Source of the DNA: Moniliella sp. 'wahieum'
Lineage: Eukaryota; Basidiomycota; Moniliellomycetes; Moniliellales; Moniliellaceae
NCBI GenBank assembly: GCA_003971905.1
Contig: RSEE01000194.1
Span: forward strand, 1 to 27,912
Reading direction: 5' to 3'
DNA: 27,912 bases
Below, piece by piece: positions 25 to 26,130 of this stretch. Positions within the stretch are counted from its first letter, which is position 1, and each line of letters opens with the position of its first letter. Below the pieces are notes generated by a model, which was given only the letters and a program-made list of their open reading frames with translations, was not told the origin of the DNA and did no database searches. A program made the translations under genes and the position numbers.

Positions 25-2667
25 CGTAAGATTCGAACTCCTCGTCTTGTCCCACGCGTAGCGAAGGAGGAAATGCTTCATGGCCTGCATGGAAATCAGC
101 ACGCCCGTCGGGGTCAAAGCGCAATGTTCCCATTGGATCTGGGCATCGTTGTGCATGCAGGAAAAAGGATAGACGCTCGGCTCAATCCACCGCTGGATCA
201 CATGGGGCTCCCCATTGGGAAGGACAGAAAATGGGCGAAAGGGCAAGGTGGTGCATGTGATTTCCTGGGGCTGCCGCGCATGGGTCCAATCCAGCACATT
301 GACCAGCAATATCCCCATTTCGTTATTTCCCTTGCGCACATTTTTAAGCGGAGTAAATGGACCTACGCCCCGGCGCGGCGCCAAAGTGGGGCCGTTGGGT
401 GCAGGCGGGGAATGAGGGATGTCGTAGGCATGGAGATGCAACATGCTTGGAATGACGGCGCGACCATTGCATCCACGAGCGATGCGAGTACCACAAGTCG
501 CTTGGGATGGAGGCGCCCAGCCGGTGGCGTGTGTGGCAATCGAGGATGGCAAGCCAGGCCGGGTGGCGGTGGACACGGCCAGTAAAGGCATGCTTGTAGC
601 CCTTCAGCACACCCAAGTATAGGCCGAAAGGAAAATTCAGTTTCACATGCTCTTTCATAAACTCGGCATCGTCGGCGTCTTCGTCTGCCAACAGGGCTGG
701 ACTGGAAAAACAAAACACGAGCGTTTCGGATTCAGGGTGGACTTCAAATCCAAACACATCCCTAACCGCAAAAGCGTCCTTCACCTGCTCAACGCCGGGG
801 AACGCGCGATTCTTGCCCTACCAAGAACAACAAAGAGAGAAACGAAAAAGAGGAGGGTTAGTCACTTGTCGTCCTGCTTCAGCAACCAGTCCGGAACGCG
901 AAATACATACAGGATTTGCCCTTTTCGGCAGCGGTGGCTGGATCAAATCCACTGTGGGCTGCCAATGAGCATTCGGCTGCGCTGGGAATCGAGATGATAC
1001 TTGGACGGATCAATGAGGAATTCGTTCACCGAGAACAGGATCTTACCTGACTCGGCGTCGTGCGCAACCAAGGTGTTGAATGATCGCTCCCACTTAATTG
1101 TAGGATCTGGTGTTTTGCCGTTCCAATCTAAGTGGGAAAAGAGCATTCGGGGCGAAAGACCAAAAGGCTCAAGGGAGTCAACCGCCTCGCCTGTCGTTAG
1201 ATTAAACATGGAAATGATTGTTTGCCGGGAGGTACATTGGGGTCATCAACGGCCGGGCCACTTGGAAGGGGGGGTAGGCGAAGGAATGTACGTAACCAAG
1301 ACAGATCGTGTAGCCACGCTAAAAAGAGAGACAAAAGTGGGGCCACCATAATCATCCCCATCACCAGGCATTCGAGCACAAGACGTACCAAGCAACCAAG
1401 CGATCATTCCCTACCAGGGCGAATCGGATTCCCAACAACGTTAAATCCGTGTCGCGTATCCCCCCGGGAATGTCCAAGACGGTGGTCTTAAGCGTCGAAG
1501 AGGGAAAGACGGCGTCATCAAAAGACGTGGTGTCGGTCGCAGCATCTGATGCAGCAGGTTCAATTGCAGTCGAAACAGCGAAATCATGCGTAACAGCAGC
1601 AACTGCTTCTTCTCCTTCAGAGTGATCGTCTTTGGTGGTATCGCAGCTCATTTTTGCGATCGTCCTTGACCTATTGTGCTGAACTAGCAAGTCCCAGCCA
1701 CCATGGTGCACAATAACAGATACGTGCGTATTGTTCCCAGGATCATCTGTCGCAAAAGGTCAGAAAGGGGTCCAGTAAAGGCGGGCAGGGATAAAAGTAA
1801 CAATGTGAAGAAGAGCGCCCAAACCAGCAACATACCCCGAAGCCAAACGCTCAGAAACGGTCCCTCATAGACGACATCGCCCCATAAAGCCACCAACCCT
1901 TCGGTGCGTCATAGGTATACAACTTGGTCTCGTGCTCCTTGTCCCAATACACCATCTGATTGTCTTCCAACTCTATCAGATCACTGCAAAAGTTCAACCC
2001 GCCATACTTGCTCTGCGGTTGGACATGCGTGTTGGTCCGTTCCTCCGCCGGACCCCCATCTCGTTCGAGCACAAGAGGGTTGACGAGCGGGTGCAGAACA
2101 AAGGGGTTGGTAGGATTGGTGGTGTCCATCTCGGTATGGGGCGGGGGGGCATCGCCTGTGGCTAGTGCCTCCGTGTCGGGGGCCCCATCATTGCAGGAGG
2201 GCGGAGAGGGATGTGCGGCGGGAGAAGGAGAGGGGCGAGGATGAGGAAGCGGTGTGCCGGACAAGCTCCATCCAAAGGGAGCGTGGAGGAGTTCGTTGGC
2301 AATGACCAACGCTTGCCATGTGCGCGGCACAATGTCCAAGCCGCAGGCATGAGTAGCGTCCTCGAGCGAGAACGGGGGCGACGGGGACGAGGCGGGCAGA
2401 CGTAGCAGCCGGTAGGCGATGCGGCGCCAGAGCGTTTGGTTTTCGTAGAGAGATGCACGTAGTCCTATGTGTGGATTAGACGCGAAAGGGTCAGCAGCCA
2501 GTGGGGCAGGACAGCTGTTGGCAAGAAGAGACAAAAGGGAGGCAGACGTTCACACGACGACACGTACGCTTGCATGTCGCCGCCAGGCGGACCACATCAC
2601 ACGGCTCCAGCAGCTCCGAGGCGGCCACTTGCCAGAAGACCTCGGTGGGCAGAAACTCCAACTTCAT
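19..2667 (-). CDS. F-box domain protein, 3' end fused to the telomere
   Basis: The proposed start is the ATG at 2665-2667. Exon 1 and the beginning of exon 2 give an F-box (about residues 4-45): LEFLPTEVFWQVAA, then a Leu/Cys-rich helix ending in LAATCK, then LRASLYENQTLWRRIAYRLL across a clean GTACGT intron. F-box proteins bind Skp1 and recruit substrates to SCF ubiquitin ligases. The rest has no domain I recognise; it looks beta-rich and acidic in places. Four introns are visible (2465-2567, 1747-1835, 1319-1388, 818-865). The frame changes without a good intron near 1880-1890, at the G7 run near 1268-1274, near 1225 and near 950. The first three could each be a one-base homopolymer miscount. 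The last frame stops with a TAG at 19-21 that is made by the telomere repeat, so the natural C-terminus is probably lost. The F-box call is fairly firm; whether the gene is functional is open. Confidence 0.6.
818..865 (-). other. Probable intron of the F-box gene
   Basis: Candidate donor GTGACTAAC and acceptor TTCTTGGTAG after a T-rich tract; 48 nt. The acceptor is good and the donor weak. The downstream exon begins KNRAFPGVEQVKDAFAVRDV. Confidence 0.45.
1319..1388 (-). other. Spliceosomal intron of the F-box gene
   Basis: Donor GTACGT and acceptor TTTTTAG after a long pyrimidine tract; 70 nt. It joins RLVA to VATRSVLVTYIPSPT in a compatible phase. Confidence 0.7.
1747..1835 (-). other. Spliceosomal intron of the F-box gene
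   Basis: Donor GTATGT, a TTCTGACC branch site and acceptor GCGACAG; 89 nt. The exon before it is read in the YEGPFLSVWLR frame and the one after in the NNTHVSVIVHHGGW frame. The hydrophobic stretch seen in this DNA is intron, not a membrane segment. Confidence 0.7.
2465..2567 (-). other. Spliceosomal intron 1 of the F-box gene
   Basis: Donor GTACGT follows CAAGC, and the acceptor is CATAG before GACTACG. Removing the 103 nt joins an Arg codon split 1/2 and makes the F-box continuous. Confidence 0.75.
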
Positions 2668-5600
2668 CGAATCCGTAAGTGTTTCACACGTGTTGCAAGG
2701 CGGAGGGGTATCAGGACACGAAGGAAGGCGAAGCGAGGACCCGGGGCCCGAGGATAGATATGTGCATTAGATTCCCCCTTGGGGGATGGGGCGGCGGACT
2801 TGGGAGGGGCTTGGCGCAGCCTGAGCGCTTGGGCCTGAGACAGCAGAGGATGCGGAGCTTTGCACAGCAAGCATAGCCAACTGATTTGACACATTTGACA
2901 GCCGGAGGAGATCCGAGATCTGAGATCTGAGATACTATGGAGGACACAGGAGGATTGGGCGCTGTGTAAGTAGCATAGCTTTTTGCCATTTTCTCCACAC
3001 CATTTCACGCCCATTGATAACGTACTGAGTACGAGTGTCATATAGTCATGCATCATGCTGCTCGTACCGAGTACAGCGTCCTGAGTGTGAATATAGGAGG
3101 CGTGGAGCGTGAAGCGTGAAGTATCCTTGGCGCTTGAAGGTCTTGAAGCCTGGGGACTACGTACAGAGGAAATGGTGCAATGCCCGTGAGACATGCTGCA
3201 CTAGGCCTGAGGCCTGCCGCGCCCTGACGATGCGGGGACCGGTGACATCACAGCTCAGATGCTCCGTTCGTGCATCCTGGGCACGGAGCCAGTGACGGGG
3301 ACACAAGCATGTTCCTAGGCAGCCTGCGGCGATGCATCACATACATGTCACACACCACACACTCTGCGCCGCGTCGCATGCCCCGCTGTCCCATTCGCAC
3401 ATGTCGCACAGCCGGCGGTGGGCAGAAGGGCAGACAGGCACTGCGAGGATGCGATGCGGGGTATGCGAGGGTACATGGCACACGTGTACTCAACGTACTC
3501 AGGTGTAGAAGACCAGAGAGCAGGCAGTTGATGGTGTATTGGCTACAGAAGAGAGGCTAGGAGACTATTTGCTAGGTAATATGCAGGCTTTACTACGTAT
3601 ATCGGGGGCGTACCAGCCCAGACTTCGTGCCTCGTGGATTGTGGTAGTGTTGCGCAGTGGTTGCTCAGCCTGAGGGCCTGTTGCTCACATCGAAGTCGAT
3701 CGGACGGGCGGACGCCACACGATCGAGAGAGCACACATGTGCCACAGTGGCCCAAATGATCGATGACCGGATCAGTACCGAACACGTTGAACTCATAAAG
3801 TCAGTACAAGCACGCATCTGGGCGCTGGAGCGACAGCTGTGGCCACTTGGATTGTGTTGCCAGTGACTCTCGACCGCACCATGGGCAGGGGGATTGTTGG
3901 GGGTTGGCCACGTCAATGTGCTGACACAGCCCTGTCGCCTCAGTTGTGGCTGCCTGTGCTCGGATCCTGGCTCGGATCCGACACGCAGAAAAGAAGTCTT
4001 CTTTCTTCTTTCTTGCCTCTGCCGTTCTGTCGCGAGGATGAATGGGTGCGGCAGGAACAACCTGCCGACCGACGAATGCCCACCCTCTTGCCCCGCAGAG
4101 AACGCTCGCCAGTTCTGGCCTTGCCTGCCTTGCCAGTGGACTCGCCTCGCATGCCGAGTGTACGCCTATATATAACAGACCCGAGAGGCCCTGGTACGCT
4201 TCATCGCCTCAATGATCATCCCGCGCGGTCGGGGGAGGGGGAGGAACGGGGGGGGCTGGTTCTGCGCCCAGAAATGGGGCACGACAGGGCACGACCCCCC
4301 AAGCAGTGGTTGAGCCCATTGTTGGGCGTGCGCATCTACCGCCGCCCTCAGGTTCCGCATTCCAACCCGTCCCGAACCCACATGTTATTCTACCTGCCTA
4401 CATACATACCAACCTACGTATCTCTCTCGCCCAACGCCGGCACGGATGCCGAAGGCTTTCCGTGCACCAAGATACAGATCGAGCGGATGGCATGGGATGA
4501 GAAGCGCCCATAGATAGATTTGGAAGGAAGATACTAGCGCTGTTGGGCTGCAACGATCCTTTTCGTACCGGCCCTCACGCTCAAAGTTCAACAAAACTAA
4601 GAAAGCAGAAAGCAGAAAGAAAGTCGGAAGGTCATACCTGAGAGCCCATGAGCCAACTCCAACTGCACTGCCTGAAACGCCAGAGGGAGAAAAGATGCTG
4701 ATGACTCCACGGTGAAAACAAAAGTGGAATGCAACGATACACTGCAAGGACACACTGCACAGCCCTTCCTGCCCCGGGTCGTCGGGATGATACGAGCGCG
4801 GTACTATCGATGCAACAACGAAGATGGTCACCGTGCTGATTCGGAACGGGACGATCCTTTCTGAAGTATATTCTCCTTGAAGACGGTTAATCGTTGATCG
4901 AATCGATTGCATGCAGACCATCTACCACACTGTCTCCTTCGTAGATATCGTGTACTATCCTCCGGTGTGGACCCAAACGGCGTGCACCAGAGGGTCCTGA
5001 CCTATGCTATTACCGGCGCCCCTGGTTTCCTACCTACGCTAGTACCAGTACGTCGCATACACCGAAGAAGCCAGAGCAAAAGTACCTAATACCCAGCAGT
5101 GTACTTGCTGCGTGAATGAGCTGGCAGTGGGACCATCGGTGGAATCCGTGCGTGCATGCGTTGACAGTCGAACCATCCGCGGAGCCCGTATGCCTTGTGC
5201 GGACCTGGTTCCCGTGGGAACGGGAAAGGCATACTATACAGGAAGGGAAGGGCACTTCCCTTCTATGGTCTTTTGTAGACATACGGGCAGCGCTGGGATC
5301 TGAGAAGCTGGGAGAAGGGTTGTCAGCGCCCCCCTCCCGCCCCTGTGTCCGACGCGACGGTCGAGGGGAGGGAGGAGGTCCACGTTTCTCCGTGACACTT
5401 TGGACTCCTTCCTGCGTAGGGAAAAGAGGGATGGAAAGGGAGAGGGAGAGGGAGAGGGAGAGGGAGAGGGAGAGGGGAGAGGGAGAGGGAGAGGAGGGAA
5501 ACAGCTGCTTTTTGGACCATGACCGCAATTGGCTCGCTCTACGTTCCTGATACCTGTGCTCAATCTGATTAGGGCTGGCACCGATGGGTGAAACCGACAC

Positions 5601-6205
5601 GGACACCGACGCCGACAGCCAGGAGGATGCAGCCCACACTCACGCGAACGGGGGGGGAGTGTTGGGCGCGTTCTGACAATGACCTGCACGCAACCAACAG
5701 AGGGAGTGCCGTACTACAACAGTAAGTGCCAGTTACTAGCCAACGCAGTGGTCGCTACAGAGGCTCTCTCTTAAGTTCTTCTTGCCTGGGTATCGCAACC
5801 CCCGCAGACCGGATCGCCTTCACCATCATGTGTATATCTGCTCGGGTATCCCTACGGCACAACTACTTAGACGCATGCCTCTGAATCGATCGATCCGACT
5901 GTGGGAGACATGCTCAGTTCTCAACAGACCGTGGTTTTATCAGCATGGGTTGTCAATTGGTTATGGCATCGTTTCCACCCCCATACGCACGCACTTGACA
6001 TCACCGTAACCGTCACCAGAAAGAAGCAGCATGGTCTACTCACCGACAAAACCCAACCCAACAGTGCTTGTGGACAAACCGCGCATCTAGACACCAACCT
6101 GATGGACCACAGAACAGAGAGGAGAGCAAAGCAGCCCACAGTTGGGCGTGTCAGCGCACCAGGGACAAAGGGAGGGGGGGGGGTAGACGGTAAACCTAAT
6201 TTCTT
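2668..6205. other. Gene-poor subtelomeric interval
   Basis: I find no supported gene in these 3.5 kb. The longest open frames (for example 3839-4513 plus and 4385-4921 minus) have unbiased composition and no motifs I know. Present are short direct repeats of GAGATCT (about 2909-2932), repeated GTACTCAGTACG-like words around 3020-3080 and 3485-3505, a TATATATAA at about 4167-4175, and a GAGAGG microsatellite. Single small exons or an unknown gene cannot be excluded. Confidence 0.5.
5436..5498. repeat. Hexanucleotide microsatellite (GGGAGA)n
   Basis: About ten copies of GGGAGA, interrupted once by an extra G, in an intergenic purine-only stretch. Confidence 0.9.
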
Positions 6206-8060
6206 TCATAGGTCGAGCACGATTTGTCCCACGCCCCTCGAAACGCACGAGAGCATGGAGGTTTTTTTCTTCGCCCCAGAGGGCCACGCCGCGATGCTCG
6301 ACGCGGCCGCGGTACGGCACGACACAGGTCCCGCACGAGCCTGCCTCGCAGAACGACGGCACATCGATCCCGGCTTCGCGCAACGTTTGGAGCAGCGAAC
6401 AGCCCGCTGGTACCTGCAGAGTCTGGTGCCGCTGGGCCAGGTAGGCAGTAAACGGATCGCCGCCCACAGGGGTGGTAAACGACTCAAAGTGGACGTACTG
6501 GTCTGGGATCTGCAGCTGCGCCGCCGTTTCCGATACGCCCTCCATCAAGCGAAGCGGGCCACATACGTACACGTGCGCTGCAGGTGCAGGGCAGTGGCAG
6601 TGGCAGTGGCAGTGGCAGATGTACTTGTACTCTGGTGTGCGGGGGAAGCGCGGCGCAGAATCTGCTTCAAATGCATGGGGCGCCCTTGGGCTTTGGGGTA
6701 GATGGTAAGATGCGGGGCGAGCGGGCGAAGCAAGTGGAGGAAGGGCACGTCGGACTCGGACCGAACGGCAAGGTGCAAATGAAACGGGGAGCTGATTCTG
6801 CAAGCAATGGTGGGCAGCCTGGATGAACGCCGTGATGCCAATCCCGCCCGCGACCATGATCCGCAGGGGGGCGGGGGCAGGAGATGCGTCGGCGTCGGCG
6901 TCGGCGTCGGCTCTCGCACTGGTGGCCTCCAAGCCAAAGGGGAACGTGGTGGAAATCTCACCAACGGGCACAACGTCGCCTTGCTGCACTTGGTGATGAA
7001 AGTAGCTGCTGCCGCCCCTCGACTGATCATCCAGAGCCACACCCAGTTGGAATTCGTGCCGAGTCCCCCGGACGATGGAGTAGACGCGCTCCAACTCACC
7101 GAGCTTGACCTTAACGCTGGATCCAGGCGGAAGTTGTTCCAGTTCCGGTTCCGGGTCCTTCTGCTCTGGCTGCTCGTTCCGCTGCTGATGTTGCTCTTGG
7201 GCTTGCGTCTCCGGCTTGCATCTCCCCCGGGGTGGAAGGGGCAGGTTCGTTGGCTCGAAGGACAAACGAAGTGATTCGGTCAGTTTCGACGTGCTTGCAC
7301 TGGACGCTGTAGGGGGTCCAGGAGGGCAAGGCCATATCTTGTCCGCCGTAGAGACGGCCCTCCATATCTTCGGCCGCGTGGCTGGCAAGACGGTTGGACA
7401 AGATGGTGCGTACCTCTTGTGCCAGGGGCGGGAGGTGGATCAAGGTGGTGAGCGCGTGGGTGTTGCGCAGGTCGGTGTACATGTAGTGCTGTACGGCAGC
7501 GATGGTCCATTGCGGGTAGGGGCGGTGCAGGAGACGGATCGTGTCGCCTGGTTGGACGGGGCCCGGGCGGAGGACACGGGAACAAGCCGGTGCGGCGCTG
7601 GTTTGAGCCTGGAGCGCCATGTCGCGCACGCCGAACCGGTGGTTGAGTTTGAAGCACGGTTGCCGCGGCTGGCTCACCTCCAGCTCGGCCTGGCCCACGG
7701 CAAACCGATCGCCAATGCAAACCGTGTGTTCATCGTACTGCGCCGCGACGAGGTTCTCCCCAAACCCGCGGGCACGAACAGCTGGTTCTCTGGCATCTCC
7801 TCTTTCCATGCCGCGTAGTGCGCGACGCAGTACTGCAGCACGGCCTTGTCCACCCCGCCGTGATCTTCGTACGCCTGCTCGTCGCCCTCCAAGCCGAGCG
7901 GGGTGATCTGGACCGGGTCGGAGCGGATGGCCTTGTGGATGGCCGAACGCAGCGGCAGACGGTTGAACTGCTGCACCTTGCCCGTCCGCACCTCCAGCAC
8001 CTTATCCTCCGGCGCATCTGGTGCGGCCGCAGCAGGAGGCGAGGCAAGGGCAGCAGACAT
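6206..8060 (-). CDS. MOSC domain - flavin/NAD reductase - [2Fe-2S] ferredoxin fusion protein
   Basis: The start is the ATG at 8058-8060. Domains in order: MOSC (about 8020-7600) with GLEGDEQAYEDHGGVDKAVLQY, then FGENLV and QPRQPCFKL, whose Cys is the expected molybdenum-cofactor ligand in this family; a YiiM-type 3-alpha segment (about 7520-7370, YPQWTIAAVQHYMY); an FAD-binding part (ITSFVLRANEP, then RVYSIV); an NAD-binding part (IMVAGGIGIT, HVYVCGP); and a plant-type ferredoxin (CEAGSCGTC, final Cys in SCVSR) ending GQIVLDL. MOSC proteins handle sulfur or hydroxylated substrates through Mo cofactor, and the reductase-ferredoxin half would pass NAD(P)H electrons. That role is inferred. The frame breaks at 7765-7767, somewhere in 7120-7240, near 6786-6789, around the 6589-6617 repeat, and at the T7 run 6262-6268. 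Most are fixed by one homopolymer base; removing one base at T7 restores the fourth cluster Cys. The variable repeat at 6589-6617 lies between the Rossmann strands. No intron is evident. Confidence 0.8.
6589..6617. repeat. Hexanucleotide repeat (GGCAGT)n inside the reductase gene
   Basis: Nearly five copies of GGCAGT lie between the nucleotide-binding motifs of the MOSC-reductase gene. The reading frame changes across it, so copy number or base calling here affects the protein. Confidence 0.85.
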
Positions 8061-8892: not shown

Positions 8893-11422
8893 TTAGAGCT
8901 TGGACTTGCAGCAGTGCTGCGTGCCGGCCGAAGCGTTGGCGGGGATGGACTTTTCGTCGCTGGTCGGGCGCACGTCGAGGAGCGGATTCCTAGTGAAGAA
9001 GCCAGTGGGCCGGAGATCAAACATGACCTTGTCCGTGGGCATCACGGGCGCTACACACACACACAGAGTCAGTCAGTCGCAGTCCCCACAACAGGGAAAC
9101 AATGCAAAAAACGAGGTTGGGTGGGGGATGCAGTGGAGGATGGTAGGGGGACGTACCATCTTCTGGCCTGGGGATGTGAGTCAGGCCGACCTGGGCAAAG
9201 ATGACAATGTCGGTATTGCGAACATTGTCATTCCCGTCGCCGACCCAGGCGGTGATCGAGTCGGGGGGCGTGTCGGTGGTTTGGACAACATGTTGCCGGC
9301 TGGGTAGAGCTGGTTTTCTGGTAGGGGAGGGTGAACCAACTGTGCTTGGCAAAGGGTGCGCGACGGGCAACAATCGAGTCGGGAGCGGCCCACAACTTGA
9401 CTTGTGCACCGGGCGCGACAAAGCGGTAGGCGACCGGGTACCCGACGCGTGGTGCTTGTGGTTCTCATTGACGATCGACCAGTACCGTTCCGAATCGTGG
9501 TCCGTGTCGCGCACCGCGTCGCCGGACGTGGCGAGCAAACGCCGTTTAATGTCAAACGCGTTGCCAGCCCAGTTCATCCGGCTGCCCGTCGGGTGCGGCG
9601 AACGCTCAATGTGCGTCTCTACCACACTGTTCTGCGGACCGTCGAGGTGCGGGTCGATGCGCACACTGTCCAGGCGCAAACGAAGGCGGTTAGTCAAACG
9701 GACTTACAAAGGGAACCCATAACCCCGCAGGACACGCATAGGGGAGAAGACGAAAGAACAAGGGTTCGCAAGGGTTACCACGTACCTGAAAATGTGCTGG
9801 TGCAGCTGCGCCTGGATCTGGGGCATGACCTCGATCGCATACGTTGGCTTTTCGCCCGGGGCGAGCAGGTTGAGGTTGAGGATGCCCGTCAGGCCCACCT
9901 CGCAACCAAGGGTGCCGTCCATGTGGAGACGCCAGCCGACCTGAGGAACAAAAGATAAAAAAACGTTAGCACACGTCCAAACTAGGGCAAGGCGGGGAAG
10001 AAGAGGAAAGGAAGATGCCCGTCGGCAACGTACCCGGTACTCGTAGTTGGCCACAGTGTACACGGACGAGATTTCAAGGATGCGTTGGCGCACGGCGGCG
10101 CCCTGGCCGTCGGGGCGGAAGTCGGTGTGTTTCCAGCCGAGGCGCCGTCGAGCTCGTGGATGCAGATGGCATTCTTGATGACCTGCGGGGTTCCGTCGTG
10201 GGCGACAATGAGGCCGTCCATGTACTCGATGCTGCCGAGGCAGTCGCAGCCCAAGTCGAGCGAGTTGGAGACAGTGCCCAGACCATATTCGCCCACGTCA
10301 AAGGCAAACTTTTGTAGTGGGGGAAATCGGGGTGGGCATAGGGCACCACCATCTCGGCCATGCTCACGCGCCAAAAGAGCGGGCGCTCGGTCGGGTTGGC
10401 CTTGGACGCCCCGGGCGCCTCATCGTCCTTGTACGAGATGGCCGAGAGCACAATGCCCTCGCGCGGGTGGAAGGCGACGTGCAACTTCCACTTTTGCCAT
10501 TCCAGCACGTTGCCCGTGCGGGTAAACGACACGCCTTCCGGCTGGACGACCGAGAGCGGCTTGAGGTCCTTGCGGAACTCGATCGGGGTCTTGCCGTCGG
10601 GCGCGGTGGCGCGGTCCGGGTGCCAGTCCGAGTGCAGACGCGGCGGGGCAAAGCGGGGCCGGTTCTGGGACTCGGAAATGTCCCATTCGGGGCCGTCGGG
10701 CGGGGCAGTGGTGCCACGGGAGGTGATGGTGAGCCCGTCGATGCGGAAGGACGGGTAGTCAATGGAGATGACCTTGGCGTCATTGACATCAATCACGGCG
10801 AAAAAGTCCATGGGGTGCGAGTAGTGGTTGTCGTGGTAGTTGTCAAAGCGGGCAAACATCAGGCCCTCCATCAGGCGGCGGCCGGGCCAGCGAATGTCGT
10901 AGCCAATGCACCAGCCGTCGGCAAACATTTCCTCGGGCTTGATGCCGACCTTGGCGGCCTCGGCGCAGCAGCGGGCGTCGTTGCGGACAATCTCCTCGGC
11001 AGAGATGATCTCTCGGGGGTGAGGGCGGGCTGGACATGCTGCGGCAGGAGGACCTCGCTGGCGACCTCGGGGGCCGGGGCCGAGGGCGGGAGGGTGACGA
11101 CGACCTCCCAGGCGCGGGACTCGTAGCGGTCGAGGACGATGACCTCGACCTGGCGCTTGATGGGCTCGGTGGCGGGAGTGAGGGCGCGCCGGGGAAGCGG
11201 ATGGCCTCGATGACGGCGTTCTTGGGGGGCTCCTTGAGGTAGGCGTTGGTGACCTTGACGCCGCGCTTGCCCTGGCTGGCGATGTGCTGGGCGGCGGTTG
11301 GCGGCGAGCTCGATCTCGATGGGGCTGGGCGGGTCGAGCGGGTGGAGGTGGTCCCAGGAGCGGTGGAGGTGGCCGCTGGACGCGGGGGCGGTGACGGTCT
11401 GGGCGGGCGAGGGGGGCGCCAT
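8893..11422 (-). CDS. Copper amine oxidase, peroxisomal (C-terminal SKL)
   Basis: Primary amine oxidases turn amines into aldehyde, ammonia and hydrogen peroxide using copper and topaquinone. Marks of the family are all present: the catalytic-base motif FDVGEYGLGTVSNSL followed by LGCDCLG; NYEY, whose first Tyr becomes topaquinone; the copper ligands HQHIF and, downstream, THIPRPED; and RIDPHLDG. The last residues CKSKL end in SKL, a standard peroxisomal import signal. The start is an ATG in a strong context (CCACCATGG) giving MAPPSPAQTV, followed by HPLDPPSPIEIE as expected near the N-terminus. Three clean introns are visible: 9941-10033, 9666-9785 and 9051-9156. The frame breaks several times in the N-terminal half (near 11290, 11185 and the G5 run 11015-11019), at the T4 run 10310-10313, and near 9300-9440. 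Homologous sequence resumes in the next frame each time, so these look like base-calling errors. The length, about 680-700 residues, suits the family. Confidence 0.88.
9051..9156 (-). other. Intron of the amine oxidase gene
   Basis: Donor GTACGT and acceptor GTGTGTAG, 106 nt. It joins THIPRPED to APVMPTDKV, matching the conserved order around the third copper His. Confidence 0.88.
9666..9785 (-). other. Intron of the amine oxidase gene
   Basis: Donor GTACGT and acceptor GGACAG, 120 nt, with a TTGACTAAC branch site. Removal joins HQHIF to SVRIDPHLDG exactly at the copper-ligand motif. Confidence 0.88.
9941..10033 (-). other. Intron of the amine oxidase gene
   Basis: Donor GTACGT directly after NYEYR, acceptor TTCCTCAG before VGWRLHMDG; 93 nt, phase 0, with GCTAACG as a branch candidate. 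Confidence 0.85.
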
Positions 11423-11490
11423 GGTGGGGGTGGGGTGGGGAGGAGGTGGGGGTGGGGGTGGCGGCCTGGAAGAAGCGGTGGGGGGGGGGG

Positions 11491-11500
11491 GATATATACA
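11491..11500 (-). promoter_or_regulatory. Probable TATA box of the amine oxidase gene
   Basis: TGTATATATC on the minus strand lies about 70 bp upstream of the ATG at 11420-11422, next to a G10 run on the plus strand. Confidence 0.5.
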
Positions 11501-11827
11501 CGCCCAATACTCCGTCGGCGCAGACAGGCCCAGGCTTCTGAGATCTGAAGGCACACTTGTGGGGCGCTGCAGGCGCTGGGCAGCCTTTAGGGCCAGAAGT
11601 TCGCAGATAACACTTCCCCCGATCGACGCTGAGGCACGCTGCCTAGTCTGGGGCAAACCCTCCAACCGGCAGTGTGCCTGGCCAGCCCCCGTTCGGTGCA
11701 ACGGCGCGGACGCAGCGCGGAGCGCGCGGCTATGGCGGTGATCCACACCCATCCCAGCCCGCGTCAGCCACGCAGCGCGCAGCGCATGCACACAGCCCCC
11801 CGCCCGGCGGCTGCGCGCTAGCCGCTG

Positions 11828-19249: not shown

Positions 19250-22200
19250 TCAGGCCTCAGGGGAGGAGGGCCAAATGCTCGCCATGCAGGACATGGTTCG
19301 TATCCCACCACGCGTCGCCGGGGGGTTTAGCGTGTCGGGCGGGCCGGGCGGCGGCGGGTCAAAGGGCGAGGCCTCACCTTCGTCGGACGAACTCAAATCC
19401 AAGCCAGCAGCGAGAAAGTCGGTGGTGCTAGGACGGGAGCCTGGGCGGGGCATGCCCGCCGCCGCTTCCAACGCCGGGGTCGCAGCACCGACACCGACTC
19501 GTCCCCGCCCGCCTCGGGCTCGAGATCCACCACATCCGCTTCAAAGTCAGGTAATTCATAATCTCAATCTCGCGTGCGGCGTGCGCGGCAGCGGCGCGCG
19601 CGGCGGTCGGGTCGTCGGCCAACGTGGGGGCCGAGGCGCTGCTGCCGCCACTGGAGGCGTTGGGACATTAGGACCGCTGGGACCGCTGGGACCGTTGGGC
19701 CCAGGGGCCCCCGTTGCCCCCCGCGTCCAGCTGGCCCACCAGCGTGCCGAGAAGTGGGCTCCCACGGCGCAGGCGGTTGGTCCTTGGTCTGGCCCAGGCT
19801 GGCCAGGGCAAAGGGGACCATGGCGGCTGGGTCCTTGGGGGAGGGTTGGACGGCTGTCGCAGCGCCGCCTGTGCCGCGCCCACGTCCGGCACGCCACGGA
19901 CGCCTTGATGCCCGACAGGGTGGAGGAGGAGGAAAACGTGGGGGAGGCAGCAGGCGAGCGCCGGGCTGGGCATCGACGAGACCGAGTGGGACGAAGCGTG
20001 TGCTCTGGCACCACGTTTCCCGCTGCCGCGGCCAGCGCATCCCCGCGGCCGCGCTTGCCACGCACCGGCACTCGTCCGGCGCCGACAGCGGCGCGGCCGG
20101 AGGCAGCATCGACGGCCCGGGGTCGAGGTCGAGGCCGAGGTCGATGGCGGCGTGGCGGCGGCCTGGTTACGCCCGCGCTTCGACACGGGCTTGCCCGGCT
20201 CGCCCTCGAGCGACGCCCGCTTCGCGGCCAGGGGCGGCGTGCCGTGCCACTGTCCGCCGCGCTGCTGTGCTGCCTGCGCCTGCGCTTGGGCGTGTGCTTT
20301 GGCCTGTGCCTGTGCTTGGGCTGGTGCCTGGGCCTGCACTTGCGCTTGGGCCTTGCTTGCGCTTGTGCGCGCGCCTGCGCTGCGCGCGGGCTTGCGCTTG
20401 GGCCTGTGCCTGAGCGCCTGCGCCTGCGCGGCCGGCAGCTGCGCCGGAACAGCCTGTCCCGCCGCGTTCGGCGGCTGCGAGGACGCTGGCGGCGGCGCCG
20501 GGGTGGCTGCGACTGCGACGGCGGGAAGCCGAGCGCGGCGCCGACGCTGGTGGTGATGTGCTGGACGTGCTCGGGCGCCTTGGCGCGGACGACCTGGATG
20601 ATGCGGCGGAGCTGGAGCATGCGCGGCTCGAGGTCGCGTAGCGGATGATAAAGATGCCCTGGGGCGCGAGGCGAATCTGTTCGCGCAACAGCAGCAGGAC
20701 TGAGCCAACTGCTTGCTAGCCAGTCCGCGCTGGTCCAGCGCCCACAGTAACGGCTGCAGCGCGCGCGCTAGCATTGTCAGTGCCGCAGCTGGCTCAGCGA
20801 AGCTACCACCTGGATCTTTTCGACTCGGGCATGTCCGAGATGGGTTGGAACGGACGCGCTTCCGCGTCCGCTGCGCCGCCTCTTCCACCATCAACGTCGC
20901 CCGACGTCCTTCCTCCACCATCTCGGGCGTAATCGTCAGTGCCGACGGCGCACCGGGCGCACCCGGTGCAGCCGTCCCGCCGGGTCCAGGCCTCGCTGCC
21001 CCTGGTGCCCCCGGTGCTCCCGGCGCTCCGACGGTGCCAGGCGCGCCATTGAGCGCCAAACCGGGGGCGGGCACAGGCTGGCGCATGGGCTGAGACGACT
21101 GGGACATGGACGGAGCAGGAGCAGGAGGGCGGCGCAAGTCCTTGCGCAAACGGCGAAGACTGAGCCTGCGGGTGGGCCTGGCTGGGCGGCCGCTGCTGGT
21201 TTGGCGGGGGCTGGTGTCGCTGTTGCTGTTGCTGTTGCGGATGCTGTTGCTGTTGCTGTTGCTGTGGTGGCAGATGTTGCTGCTGTTGTGGCGGTTGTGA
21301 TTGGTGTTGCCGTGCTGCTGCTGCTGAGTGTTGGCTGCTGGTTGCTGCTGGTGCTGTTGCTGTTGCTGTGCTGTTGTTGTGCGGCTGCTGCTGCTGAGCC
21401 AAGGCAGTTTGCTGAGCGTTCCTCAGCAAGGCATTGAACTGCTCCGGCGTGATGCTCATCGAAGCCAGCTGCTGGGGCGTGATTTGCGACAAGTTGGCCA
21501 GCTGGGCAAACGGTTGCGAGGCCTGGGTTGGAGGCTGAGGTGTGGCTGTGGTTGTGGCTGTACCTGAGCCGGAGCCGGAGCCTGTACCGACGGCGGAGCA
21601 GGAGCCGGCTCAGAGGCAGGCGGCGCGGCCGGGGAACTGATTCGACCGTCGGCCCACCTGGCCCACCTGGCCAGCTGGCTCTCGCAGCCTGCTGCTGCAG
21701 TCGCGCCGCCTGCAACATCTGGTGCTTTCGCACGACCATCTTCCACGCCTCCTCGAACGGCTTGACGTACTGCGTGTAGAGCTGGAGCAGGGCGGGTGCG
21801 ACGTGGCGCGCGGCGGGCGGGACGGTAGGTGGGCCCGGTGGGCGCGGGACGAGGTCCAAGGCCATCGCTACGCTCGGCCACGCGTCCGCCGCACTCACCG
21901 CATCCGAACCGTTGTACCCGGCCACAGTCTGGTACAGACGGAACAAGTTGACCGGCACATTGTTCACGCGCGGATCTGCCGGCCACGCCGAGCCGCGCTT
22001 GGCCAACAGTTCGGACGTGATGTGCTTGAAACGCTCCTCCGTCAGGCTCTGCCGTGTCGCCTGCAGCGTCGCGGCCATGATCTGCTGTTGCTGCGCCGGC
22101 GTCGGCGCCGGCATGGAGGCGAGCATGCCCTGGGGCGGAGTTCCCTGGCCCAGTGGGCCAGGCGTTTGGCCCTGCGCTTGGGCTGTGCTTGCGCTTGCGC

Positions 22201-24779: not shown

Positions 24780-26130
24780 CTAGCGGGGGGTCAGCACACG
24801 CATCCGCACACGCGTCCGCGTCCACGCAGGCAGCCACGGCACCGACGCGTCCCACCCAAGCGGCAACGGCAACGGCAACGGCAACGGCACCGACGCGTCG
24901 CAACCCACCGGCGAGCCAGGCAAGCTCTCGAGCGGCATGAGCCACGTGTCGATCCACGGCTGCGCGTCCGGTCCTGGGCAAGACCAAGTGTGCTGCGACG
25001 AGGGCAGGGAGCCTCCAGTGTCCGTCGTGGTGGCCGGGCATGGTTCCTGCTCCGCGTCCTCCACGTCCAGCATGAGCGCGGCCAACGTCTCGGGCGGAGA
25101 GAGAAGCACGTTGGCGGTGTCGGATGAGGCTGGAGCTGGTGCCGAAGCTGGGGCCGGGACGGGAGGTGGGACCAGAGTCGGGCTAGCGCCGCGGGGAACA
25201 ACGACGCGAGGTCAAGCGGGGTGGGCAAAGTGGTGGCTGAGCAGGACGGCGTCGTGGGCCGCAGCGGCACGGGCGTCGAGGGCGAGGGAAGAGCGCTCGC
25301 AGCGGGAGATCGCCTTCACTGCAGGAAGGCGAGCGCTCAATTCCGACGTCTCGGGCCCGGCCGAAGCAGCGCAGGGCACGTCGCGGTCAGCCTTATCCCG
25401 GTCCGATGCTGGTGGTGCTGGTGCCGATGCCGATGCTGGCGTCGCAGGTGGCGCGGGGGCCGTGCTGGACGCAGCTGACGAGCCGGGGCTGGCCCACACG
25501 CGGGCAAGACGTGCGTGGTGGGATTGGCGAGGGTTAGATGTGGAGGAAAGAGGGGAGGCTGTGGGGCTGGTGCTGGGTCTGGTGGAGACGAGCTTCTCGC
25601 CTTCGGGGGGAGCGGAAGCGGAAGAGCAGCAGCGGGAACGGGGACGGGAACGGTCGGATCGAGGGGTACCGGACCTGGCTGGCCGACGGCAGCGACATAG
25701 GCCGCTACCTGACGCAACGTGTGCCGTGCGTCGTCCGTAGCGTTCGCGCCAAGCAGCACGCCAATCGTGTGGAACCGAGTCTCGTAGTCCTGCAGCTGTG
25801 CCACAGCTCAGCCTGGTCTGCGACAACTGCGCGTGCTGCCGCTCCAGCTGCGACACATAGTTCTTCTTCTTGTCGCGGCTGGCCTGGGCCGACAGGCGGT
25901 TGCGCGCCGGCGCCTCCAAGCGCGCTGCCGGTCCGGCGTAAGCACCTTCGGCCGTTTGCTCCCCGCGGTCAGGGTGGTCTGGGGGGATCGTCGGGGACCA
26001 GAGGCGGAGTGGGCCGCTTGCGTGCCCGGCCGGCTTCGGGGAGGCCGAAGCAGAGGGTGAGAGGAAGAAGCCGAGGCGAGGCCGAAGCCAGCGCAGCAAG
26101 CCCGTCTGTGTCGGTGGCCACCGCGGACAT
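24780..26130 (-). CDS. HAC1/XBP1-like bZIP transcription factor of the unfolded protein response
   Basis: Hac1/XBP1 proteins activate ER-stress genes and are switched on when Ire1 splices their mRNA. The start ATG (26128-26130) gives MSAVATDTDGLAAL. The basic region reads SKRPKVLTPDRQ, then RNRLSAQASRDKKKNYVSQL; the N-R-x-x-A-Q-x-x-R-D-x-K-K order is closer to XBP1/HAC1 than to Gcn4 or Yap. A leucine zipper follows (QLERQHAQLSQ, then AQLQDYETRFHTI in another frame). Later comes PPEGEKLVSTRPS, then a frame that ends at a TGA (25212-25214) after LLSHHFAHPA. Twin Ire1-type hairpins lie about 80-120 bp before that TGA. The frame reached after removing the 19 nt bypasses it with LPTPLDLASLFPAALA. 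One more frame change leads into an acidic end (ETLAALMLDVEDAEQE), stopping at 24780. Frameshifts lie near 25940-26000, 25810 and 25620. The bZIP call is strong; the UPR role rests on the hairpins plus family resemblance. Confidence 0.72.
24862..24892. repeat. Hexanucleotide repeat (GGCAAC)n
   Basis: About five copies near the 3' end of the bZIP gene; on the minus strand they read as a Pro-Leu repeat in the frame ending at 24780. Confidence 0.9.
25293..25313 (-). promoter_or_regulatory. Ire1-type splice-site hairpin, downstream site
   Basis: Loop CCGCTGC (25299-25305) fits CNGCNGN. The stem is CTC/GAG next to the loop, then a two-base bulge (AT), then GCG/CGC. Cleavage is expected between 25303 and 25302. 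It is less stable than the first hairpin and shares three bases with it. Confidence 0.6.
25303..25321 (-). other. Putative 19-nt unconventional (Ire1/tRNA-ligase) intron
   Basis: Bases between the two predicted Ire1 cuts, beginning CAG and ending CCG. The length is not a multiple of three, so removal changes the frame and skips the TGA at 25212-25214. There is no GT-AG border. Given base-calling errors nearby, the true length could be off by one. Confidence 0.6.
25310..25332 (-). promoter_or_regulatory. Ire1-type splice-site hairpin, upstream site
   Basis: On the transcript strand an 8-bp perfect stem (TCGCCTTC with GAAGGCGA) closes a seven-base loop CTGCAGT. The loop fits CNGCNGN, the sequence and size cut by Ire1 in HAC1/XBP1 mRNA. 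Cleavage is expected after the third loop base, between 25322 and 25321. Confidence 0.75.

What the first reader, a model, noticed from the sequence alone, without database searches (positions are those of the whole stretch)
25293..25332. Twin Ire1 loops in a bZIP gene: a HAC1/XBP1-type unconventional intron of 19 nt
Seen: two neighbouring minus-strand hairpins with seven-base loops CTGCAGT and CCGCTGC, both fitting CNGCNGN, and the first on a perfect 8-bp stem. Known: Ire1 cuts such loops after the third base in HAC1/XBP1 mRNA. Inferred: cutting both removes 19 nt, changes the frame and skips the TGA at 25212-25214, giving a longer C-terminus with LPTPLDLASLFPAALA. The bZIP basic region upstream is XBP1-like, so sequence, structure and frame logic agree. 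An intron this short would be close to those of filamentous ascomycetes and far from the 252 nt of yeast HAC1.
Basis: partly seen in the sequence, partly recalled or inferred. Interest (0 to 1): 0.88.

Follow-up and report, generated by a model that had tools for sequence, protein, structure and literature searches.

The report
Ire1-type 19-base intron in HAC1 gene
A smut-related fungus very probably switches on its cell-stress master gene by cutting 19 bases out of the messenger RNA at two matching hairpins, the same trick known from yeast and people, here kept in seven gene copies.

Summary
The minus strand at 25338-25291 carries two 7-base CNGCNGN loops; cuts after the third base would remove 25321-25303, 19 nt. 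It is the only such twin (spacing 15-35) in the window; 0 of 200 shuffles gave one. The block occurs 8 times in the 69.5-Mb source genome, each time beside a HAC1-type bZIP. Seven copies keep both loops and 19-nt spacing. Between copies W and C14, all 8 base changes in the structure fall on free loop positions or keep pairing. In the intact copy (C14) removal of 19 nt turns a 280-aa into a 396-aa protein. Downstream substitutions between C14 and C7 sit in third positions of the spliced frame (39 of 59), hardly in those of the unspliced frame (3 of 59). The genome encodes Ire1 and a Trl1-type ligase. Against: the uncut RNA is predicted to fold otherwise, a conventional intron is not excluded, and the window's own copy has broken frames. 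No RNA evidence. Known mechanism, new member; 19 nt is also known from Candida albicans.

The parts
24780..26130 (-). HAC1-type bZIP gene, window copy (start ATG at 26130 by likeness to copies C117 and C14; reading frame broken in several places)
   Evidence: the same N-terminus and bZIP are in one frame in C117 and C14
25842..25904 (-). basic region and start of the zipper (RNRLSAQASRDKKKNYVSQLE)
25291..25338 (-). whole conserved block: outer stem, twin Ire1 hairpins
25334..25338 (-). outer stem P1, 5' strand (pairs with 25291-25295)
25310..25332 (-). hairpin 1 (8-bp stem; loop CTGCAGT at 25318-25324; predicted cut 25322|25321)
25303..25321 (-). predicted 19-nt Ire1 intron
25296..25308 (-). 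hairpin 2 (3-bp stem; loop CCGCTGC at 25299-25305; predicted cut 25303|25302)
25329..25338 (-). 5'-exon arm of a 10-bp exon-exon zipper (pairs with 25291-25300)
25212..25214 (-). TGA that ends the unspliced frame
24780..25109 (-). open frame holding a likely C-terminal segment (ETLAALMLDVEDAEQ...), out of the spliced frame in the assembled window copy

Best explanation
This is the unconventional intron of a HAC1/XBP1-type gene of a basidiomycete close to Exobasidiomycetes. Under ER stress the Ire1 RNase cuts both CNG|CNGN loops (inferred), a 10-bp pairing between the two exons holds the ends together and expels the 19-nt piece (inferred from predicted pairing), and the Trl1-type ligase joins the exons (inferred from its presence). 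The frame change replaces a short tail, ending at a stop 71 nt (C14 group) or 107 nt (window group) past the first cut, by a long acidic tail (shown by sequence in copies C14 and C19), turning a weak bZIP into an activator (inferred from HAC1 and XBP1). The window copy is one of eight related copies; its frames are disturbed, probably by assembly indels.
For: Block at 8 places in 69.5 Mb with up to 3 mismatches, 0 for the reversed pattern; all 8 lie 460-587 nt downstream of a HAC1-like basic region; the bZIP in C4 has no block. 7 of 8 copies keep both loops and 19-nt spacing. All 8 differences between the W and C14 blocks (positions 3-50) are structure-neutral: 4 at loop N positions, 4 in stems keeping pairs, including UA to CG at one pair. 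Third bases are otherwise free: identical in 30 of 50 same-residue bZIP codons for C117 against C14, 26 of 50 against C7, 32 of 48 against C59. C14: 280 aa unspliced, 396 aa spliced, one frame from ATG. C14 against C7 downstream: 39 of 59 substitutions in third positions of the spliced frame (P 2.7e-7), 3 of 59 in those of the unspliced frame (P 1.8e-7), sites taken as independent. Ire1 RNase: E 5.4e-15 to solved Ire1 chains, Pfam 130.7 bits for copy C6. Trl1-type ligase, kinase and phosphodiesterase domains. Exon-exon duplex of 10 bp, -21.2 to -21.9 kcal/mol, in all 5 distinct blocks. A Tilletiaria anomala bZIP protein has SARLPAVEA where the block encodes SARLPA[VA]KA.
Against: No RNA data. 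A conventional intron is not excluded: in the C14/C19/C7/C40 alignment 59 GT-AG pairs of 40-250 nt span the joint at shared places, and 19 of them have length 1 modulo 3 in all four; the phase test cannot tell these from the 19-nt intron. Covariation is thin: 4 distinct blocks, one pair with changes on both sides, 239 of 500 shuffles do as well. C112 has a C-A mismatch in hairpin 2. Hairpin 2 is only 3 bp. The twin-hairpin fold is predicted 5.5-6.0 kcal/mol (10.8 in C112) above the minimum; in W loop 2 is buried (G38/C39 unpaired 0.03 and 0.04) and the lower stem of hairpin 1 hardly forms (0.03). The longer C-terminus is not continuous in the window copy, nor in C117, C112, C7 or C40. C112 against C117 shows no clear phase downstream (12, 8, 7). 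No Rfam match to such introns.
Confidence: 0.9

Rival explanations
1. A conventional GT-AG intron spanning the block changes the frame, and the hairpin has another role.
For: The phase test fixes only the intron length modulo 3, not its ends; 19 of 59 shared GT-AG pairs spanning the joint in four copies have length 1 modulo 3 in all four. I raised this rival from 0.03 to 0.05 after that count.
Against: About a third of random pairs would have that length modulo 3, so 19 of 59 is no excess. The three nearest shared donors read GTCG, GT(CC/TT)GT and GTCC in the rows, unlike the usual fungal GTRNGT (recalled). No GT is shared inside the block between the W and C14 blocks. It would leave the conserved twin loops unexplained. 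Donor and branch-site scoring was not done.
Confidence: 0.05
2. The hairpins are Ire1 decay (RIDD) sites: Ire1 cuts but the ends are not joined, and the mRNA is destroyed.
For: CNGCAGN hairpins also mark RIDD targets (PMC8674358 and PMC6037481, passages seen).
Against: Two loops at fixed 19-nt spacing, an exon-exon zipper in all 5 distinct blocks, and a selected downstream frame that needs removal of a length of 1 modulo 3.
Confidence: 0.03
3. The block is alike only because of recent gene conversion or duplication among copies and has no function.
For: Some copies are near-identical; W and C117 are identical over 355 nt around the block.
Against: Between the W and C7/C14 groups blastn aligns only the bZIP and the block, and the changes between the W and C14 blocks avoid every structural position. 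The C112 mismatch is the one exception among the four blocks.
Confidence: 0.02

Closest known systems
HAC1 of Candida albicans and of Aspergillus fumigatus (19-nt and 20-nt introns; PMC3154848, PMC6222058, passages seen)
   Same: bZIP gene, twin loops, short intron that changes the C-terminus
   Different: Ascomycetes; the block here is GC-rich and its hairpin arms overlap the exon zipper; several copies per genome
HXL1 of Cryptococcus neoformans (56-nt intron; PMC3154848, passages seen)
   Same: Basidiomycete Ire1-spliced bZIP
   Different: Intron 56 against 19 nt; [quoted passage not shown]
cib1 of Ustilago maydis (PMC10688622, PMC6918084, passages seen; intron of about 65 nt is recalled only)
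   Same: Same subphylum as the nearest named relatives; Ire1-spliced bZIP
   Different: Longer intron (recalled); the related Pseudozyma protein P0004 shows no SARLPA stretch by reading
XBP1 of animals (26 nt, CNG|CAGN loops, 7-nt; PMC8674358, passages seen)
   Same: 7-nt loops, cut after the third base, exon zipper (Peschek 2015 as described in PMC6037481)
   Different: Second loop here is CCGCTGC or CAGCAGC; no match to any Rfam model, which by PMC11701678 includes a metazoan one, RF04247

Membership tests
HAC1/XBP1-type unconventional intron gene | bZIP with HAC1/XBP1-like basic region | tested here: met
   C14 copy: Pfam bZIP_1 36.4 bits, cut-off 27.6. Window copy alone: 25.4 bits, below the cut-off, with its zipper in another frame. 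Likeness to HAC1/XBP1 rather than other bZIPs is by eye; the weak PDB hits were an unnamed protein, CREB and ATF-2.
HAC1/XBP1-type unconventional intron gene | two 7-nt CNG|CNGN loops on stems at the intron borders | tested here: met
   7 of 8 block copies; in C59 loop 1 reads CACCAGC. As sequence only: predicted folds of the uncut RNA differ.
HAC1/XBP1-type unconventional intron gene | removal changes frame and gives a new, longer C-terminus | tested here: met
   C14 280 to 396 aa, C19 likewise in its 3' part; substitution phase. Not continuous in W, C117, C112, C7, C40.
HAC1/XBP1-type unconventional intron gene | Ire1 kinase-RNase in the genome | tested here: met
   5 RNase-domain matches in 4 contigs, all over the cut-off, one with an inner stop; kinase piece and RNase piece of the C5 copy; match to solved Ire1 chains.
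HAC1/XBP1-type unconventional intron gene | ligase for the exons | tested here: met
   Trl1-type ligase in contigs C10 and C115; C10 with kinase and phosphodiesterase domains; relatives.
HAC1/XBP1-type unconventional intron gene | stress-induced removal of the intron from mRNA | not testable with these tools
   No RNA reads available.
Rfam RF04247 (metazoan Hac1/Xbp1 intron; PMC11701678, passages seen) | covariance model score | tested here: not met
   No match of the 62-nt block to any of 4227 families at E up to 10, nor of this kind. That RF04247 is among the 4227 was not checked. The gene is not filed under this model.
Orthologue of U. maydis cib1 or C. neoformans HXL1 | orthology by sequence | tested here: inconclusive
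   Two protein searches gave one hit each: Pseudozyma hubeiensis P0004 (51% over 25% of the query; only the 8000 candidates sharing most words were scored) and Tilletiaria anomala P0079 (42% over 95% of the bZIP region; 212 candidates). No tree was built.

The most novel reading that the evidence does not exclude
The 48-nt block is a bistable switch: the uncut RNA already prefers the exon-exon zipper, which in the window group buries loop 2 while loop 1 stays open, so cutting would be ordered (loop 1 first, loop 2 only after remodelling by Ire1 or a ribosome). In one genome a family of four to five HAC1 lineages shares this switch, and one (C59) has lost the base before the first cut and would be uncoupled from Ire1.
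Probability: 0.15. Interest if true: 0.6.

Novelty: new member of a known kind. Interest (0 to 1): 0.42.

Why it matters
It extends very short Ire1 introns to a lineage near Exobasidiomycetes, whereas introns known to me from other basidiomycetes are longer (56 nt in Cryptococcus, passages seen; about 65 nt in Ustilago, recalled). Eight related copies in one genome give natural variants of the same RNA switch, including one broken cut site, and the zipper and hairpins overlap in so little sequence that it bears on the minimal RNA needed. Gene finders are likely to annotate only the unspliced form, as may be the case for the Tilletiaria protein P0079 (inference).

Tried and rejected
Rfam at gathering score and by E-value gave nothing useful (one weak match, WLE3, E 0.42). 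RNAalifold was not run; I named the structure and counted pairs, and the covariation alone is not significant. A covariance model was built but could not be run on the genome. Folding the uncut RNA does not return the textbook twin hairpins; I count this against a simple picture. The W/C117/C112 group was tested for substitution phase and was uninformative (27 substitutions downstream). W against C117: blastn gives 3 mismatches and 38 gap openings (52 gap columns) in 2407 columns, MAFFT 25 substitutions and 28 indels in 2405; the two disagree, probably because neighbouring opposite indels can be aligned as substitutions. Either way indels are at least as frequent as substitutions, which I read as assembly error rather than decay, without proof. 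The bZIP in C4 served as a negative control and lacks the block. Conventional GT-AG introns were enumerated and are not excluded. Hooks and Griffiths-Jones 2011 (PMC3225973) is not held; Peschek 2015 was not requested and is known here only through PMC6037481.

Full report
WHAT IS THERE. On the minus strand, positions 25338-25291 can be read as an outer 5-bp stem, an 8-bp hairpin with loop CTGCAGT (25324-25318) and a 3-bp hairpin with loop CCGCTGC (25305-25299). Cuts after the third loop base would remove 25321-25303, 19 nt. In a scan of both strands this is the only such twin at a spacing of 15-35 nt in the window, and 0 of 200 dinucleotide shuffles of the minus strand held one; single CNGCNGN loops on 8-bp stems averaged 0.02 per shuffle.

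COPIES IN THE SOURCE GENOME. The window is the whole of contig C194 in a 69.5-Mb assembly of 223 contigs. A protein search with the window's open frame found 14 matches in nine contigs. A 28-base pattern of the outer stem and hairpin 1, with up to 3 mismatches, found 8 places: C7, C14, C19, C40, C112, C117, C194 without mismatch and C59 with one; the reversed pattern found 0. All 8 lie 460-587 nt downstream of a HAC1-like basic region. The ninth bZIP, in C4, has no block. By DNA similarity the copies fall into W and C117 (97.7%), C112 (87% to W), C7 and C40 (95%), C14 and C19 (94%), and C59. I read this as four to five lineages, some present as two haplotypes or homeologues; that is inference.

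CONSERVATION OF THE STRUCTURE. Between W and the C7/C14 groups blastn aligns only the bZIP and the block; the block aligns without a gap. The loops read CTGCAGT and CCGCTGC in 3 copies and CAGCAGC and CAGCAGC in 4; the spacing is 19 nt in all 7. Of 8 base differences between the W and C14 blocks (positions 3-50), 4 are at N positions of the loops and 4 in stems, where they turn UA into UG, CG into UG, and UA into CG by two changes. In C112 one hairpin-2 pair is C-A. With only 4 distinct blocks the covariation count is not significant by itself (239 of 500 shuffles do as well). Third bases agree in only 30 of 50 same-residue codons of the bZIP between C117 and C14, 26 of 50 with C7 and 32 of 48 with C59, so the sameness of the block seems to go beyond protein constraint (inference). 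C59 keeps hairpin 1's stem and the spacing, but its loop 1 is CACCAGC, without the G before the cut.

FRAME LOGIC. Contig C14 holds an unbroken frame from ATG through the bZIP to the block: 280 aa if unspliced, 396 aa after removal of the 19 nt. The new tail includes KEEKEDKMEDVFEPSPMADELLFFDGLPEAEWGLDPWL, acidic and hydrophobic as expected for an activation domain (inference). C19 has the same tail but for its last residues; its own zipper is frame-shifted. C7 and C40 have it in pieces. Substitutions between C14 and C7 downstream of the block fall 39, 17 and 3 by phase; the 39 are third positions of the spliced frame (P 2.7e-7) and the 3 are third positions of the unspliced frame (P 1.8e-7), if sites are independent. 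C14 against C40 gives 35, 18, 5; C19 against C7 gives 36, 21, 7; C112 against C117 gives 12, 8, 7, which says nothing. Upstream, C14 against C7 gives 91 of 173 in the same phase. So selection has kept a frame that exists only if a length of 1 modulo 3 is removed. The test fixes the length modulo 3, not the ends: of 59 GT-AG pairs (40-250 nt) that span the joint at shared places in C14, C19, C7 and C40, 19 have length 1 modulo 3 in all four. A conventional intron is thus not excluded by sequence; the three nearest donors are poor by the recalled fungal consensus.

THE WINDOW COPY. Here the basic region and the stretch around the loops share one frame, ending at TGA 25214-25212. The zipper lies in a second frame, and the presumed start ATG at 26130 in a third. 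In C117 start, basic region and zipper are in one frame. W and C117 differ by 38 gap openings and 3 mismatches by blastn, or 28 indels and 25 substitutions by MAFFT, but are identical from 25534 to 25180, 355 nt with the block inside. After splicing, the window frame gives ASALP...LPTPLDLASLFPAALA and then runs on to 24791 in what looks like non-coding sequence, while a segment common to W, C117 and C112 (ETLAALMLD...) lies in another frame in all three. I put this down to small assembly indels, as an intact copy of the other group exists, but real decay of this group, or a further intron, is not excluded.

MACHINERY. The RNase domain of Ire1 is found at 5 places in 4 contigs, all over the Pfam cut-off; the piece from C5 matches solved Ire1 chains (best 2rio, E 5.4e-15; that 2rio is the yeast protein is recalled), with the stretch SYDPHKVQDLLRAMRNKAHHYQDMS aligned to the active-site region (residue roles recalled). 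Ligase, kinase and phosphodiesterase domains of a Trl1-type tRNA ligase are present. Of 74 ligase relatives the two best are unnamed (65 and 63% identity); the first named ones are Meira, Malassezia and Exobasidium, with Violaceomyces and Ustilago further down beside many other basidiomycetes (candidates capped at 8000). The best bZIP hit in the region search is Tilletiaria anomala, an Exobasidiomycete. The source is therefore probably a Ustilaginomycotina fungus near Exobasidiomycetes (inference). The Tilletiaria protein P0079 reads SESSARLPAVEAFTQQRAL where the block here encodes SARLPA[VA]KA, which suggests the block is older than this genome (its DNA was not seen).

MECHANISM. After both cuts, the exon ends of all 5 distinct blocks can form a 10-bp duplex of -21.2 to -21.9 kcal/mol, while the intron alone hardly folds (-0.1 to -1.6). 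This is the arrangement described for XBP1 as a conformational RNA rearrangement or zipper (Peschek 2015, as described in PMC6037481, section 8 and passages read; the original not read). In the uncut RNA the same stem is predicted to form already. In W it hides loop 2 (cut bases unpaired 0.03 and 0.04) and leaves loop 1 open (0.97); in C7 and C14 the values are 0.45 and 0.71 for loop 2 and 0.64 for loop 1. The twin-hairpin fold lies 5.5-6.0 kcal/mol above the minimum in W, C7 and C14 and 10.8 in C112. Either the prediction misses protein and kinetic effects, or cutting is ordered. The remembered human XBP1 stretch, folded the same way, returns its hairpin 2 but not its hairpin 1.

WHAT IS KNOWN. 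Loops CNG|CAGN of 7 nt in XBP1 and a 26-nt intron (PMC8674358, passages); 19 nt in C. albicans and 20 nt in A. fumigatus, 56 nt in C. neoformans HXL1 (PMC3154848, passages); 19-22 nt in some Candida species (PMC6222058, passages); splicing of cib1 in U. maydis (PMC10688622, passages). Rfam 15 is said to hold a model of this intron found in Metazoa (PMC11701678, passages); no Rfam family matches the block. I found no paper on this intron in Exobasidiomycetes in the listed rows (20 of 38; 20 of 30; 10 of 12; 10 of 163; 2 of 2; Ustilaginomycotina, unfolded protein response, Ire1) returned 0 papers. The library holds open-licence papers only.

VERDICT. By sequence, frame and machinery very probably a real Ire1-type intron; a new member of a known kind. 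The splicing event itself, and its exact ends, remain to be shown.

Noticed in passing
G000 contig C59, 411593-411620 (+), locus L017: Eighth copy of the block with one change in loop 1 (CACCAGC), removing the G before the predicted first cut; no acidic tail was recognised downstream by eye. A natural loss-of-site variant, a decaying copy or a sequence error.
   Followed up: partly
window 25692-25686 (-): A further CNGCNGN loop (CTGCCGT) on a 4-bp stem about 370 nt upstream of the twin, also in C117 and C112 but not seen in the C7, C14, C19 and C40 copies.
   Followed up: no
G000 contig C4, locus L018: A related bZIP (RNRASAQASRDKKKAF), by eye closer to the Tilletiaria protein in its basic region, without the twin-loop block.
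   Followed up: partly
window 1000-3000: This stretch has a 93% copy over its whole length in C112 and further partial matches of 68-89% in C112 and in contigs C86, C24, C12, C202, C126, C25, C133: a duplicated or repeated family.
   Followed up: no
window 6087-7388 (-), 10074-11507 (-), 20936-22126 (-): Open frames with Pfam matches to a 2Fe-2S domain (part), copper amine oxidase (two domains, the enzyme domain in part) and a nearly full-length ARID domain.
   Followed up: no
G000 contigs C6, C5, C80, C27: Ire1-like genes are also present in several copies; pieces read in C6, C5 and C80 lie in several frames (introns and breaks not told apart), in line with a duplicated genome.
   Followed up: partly
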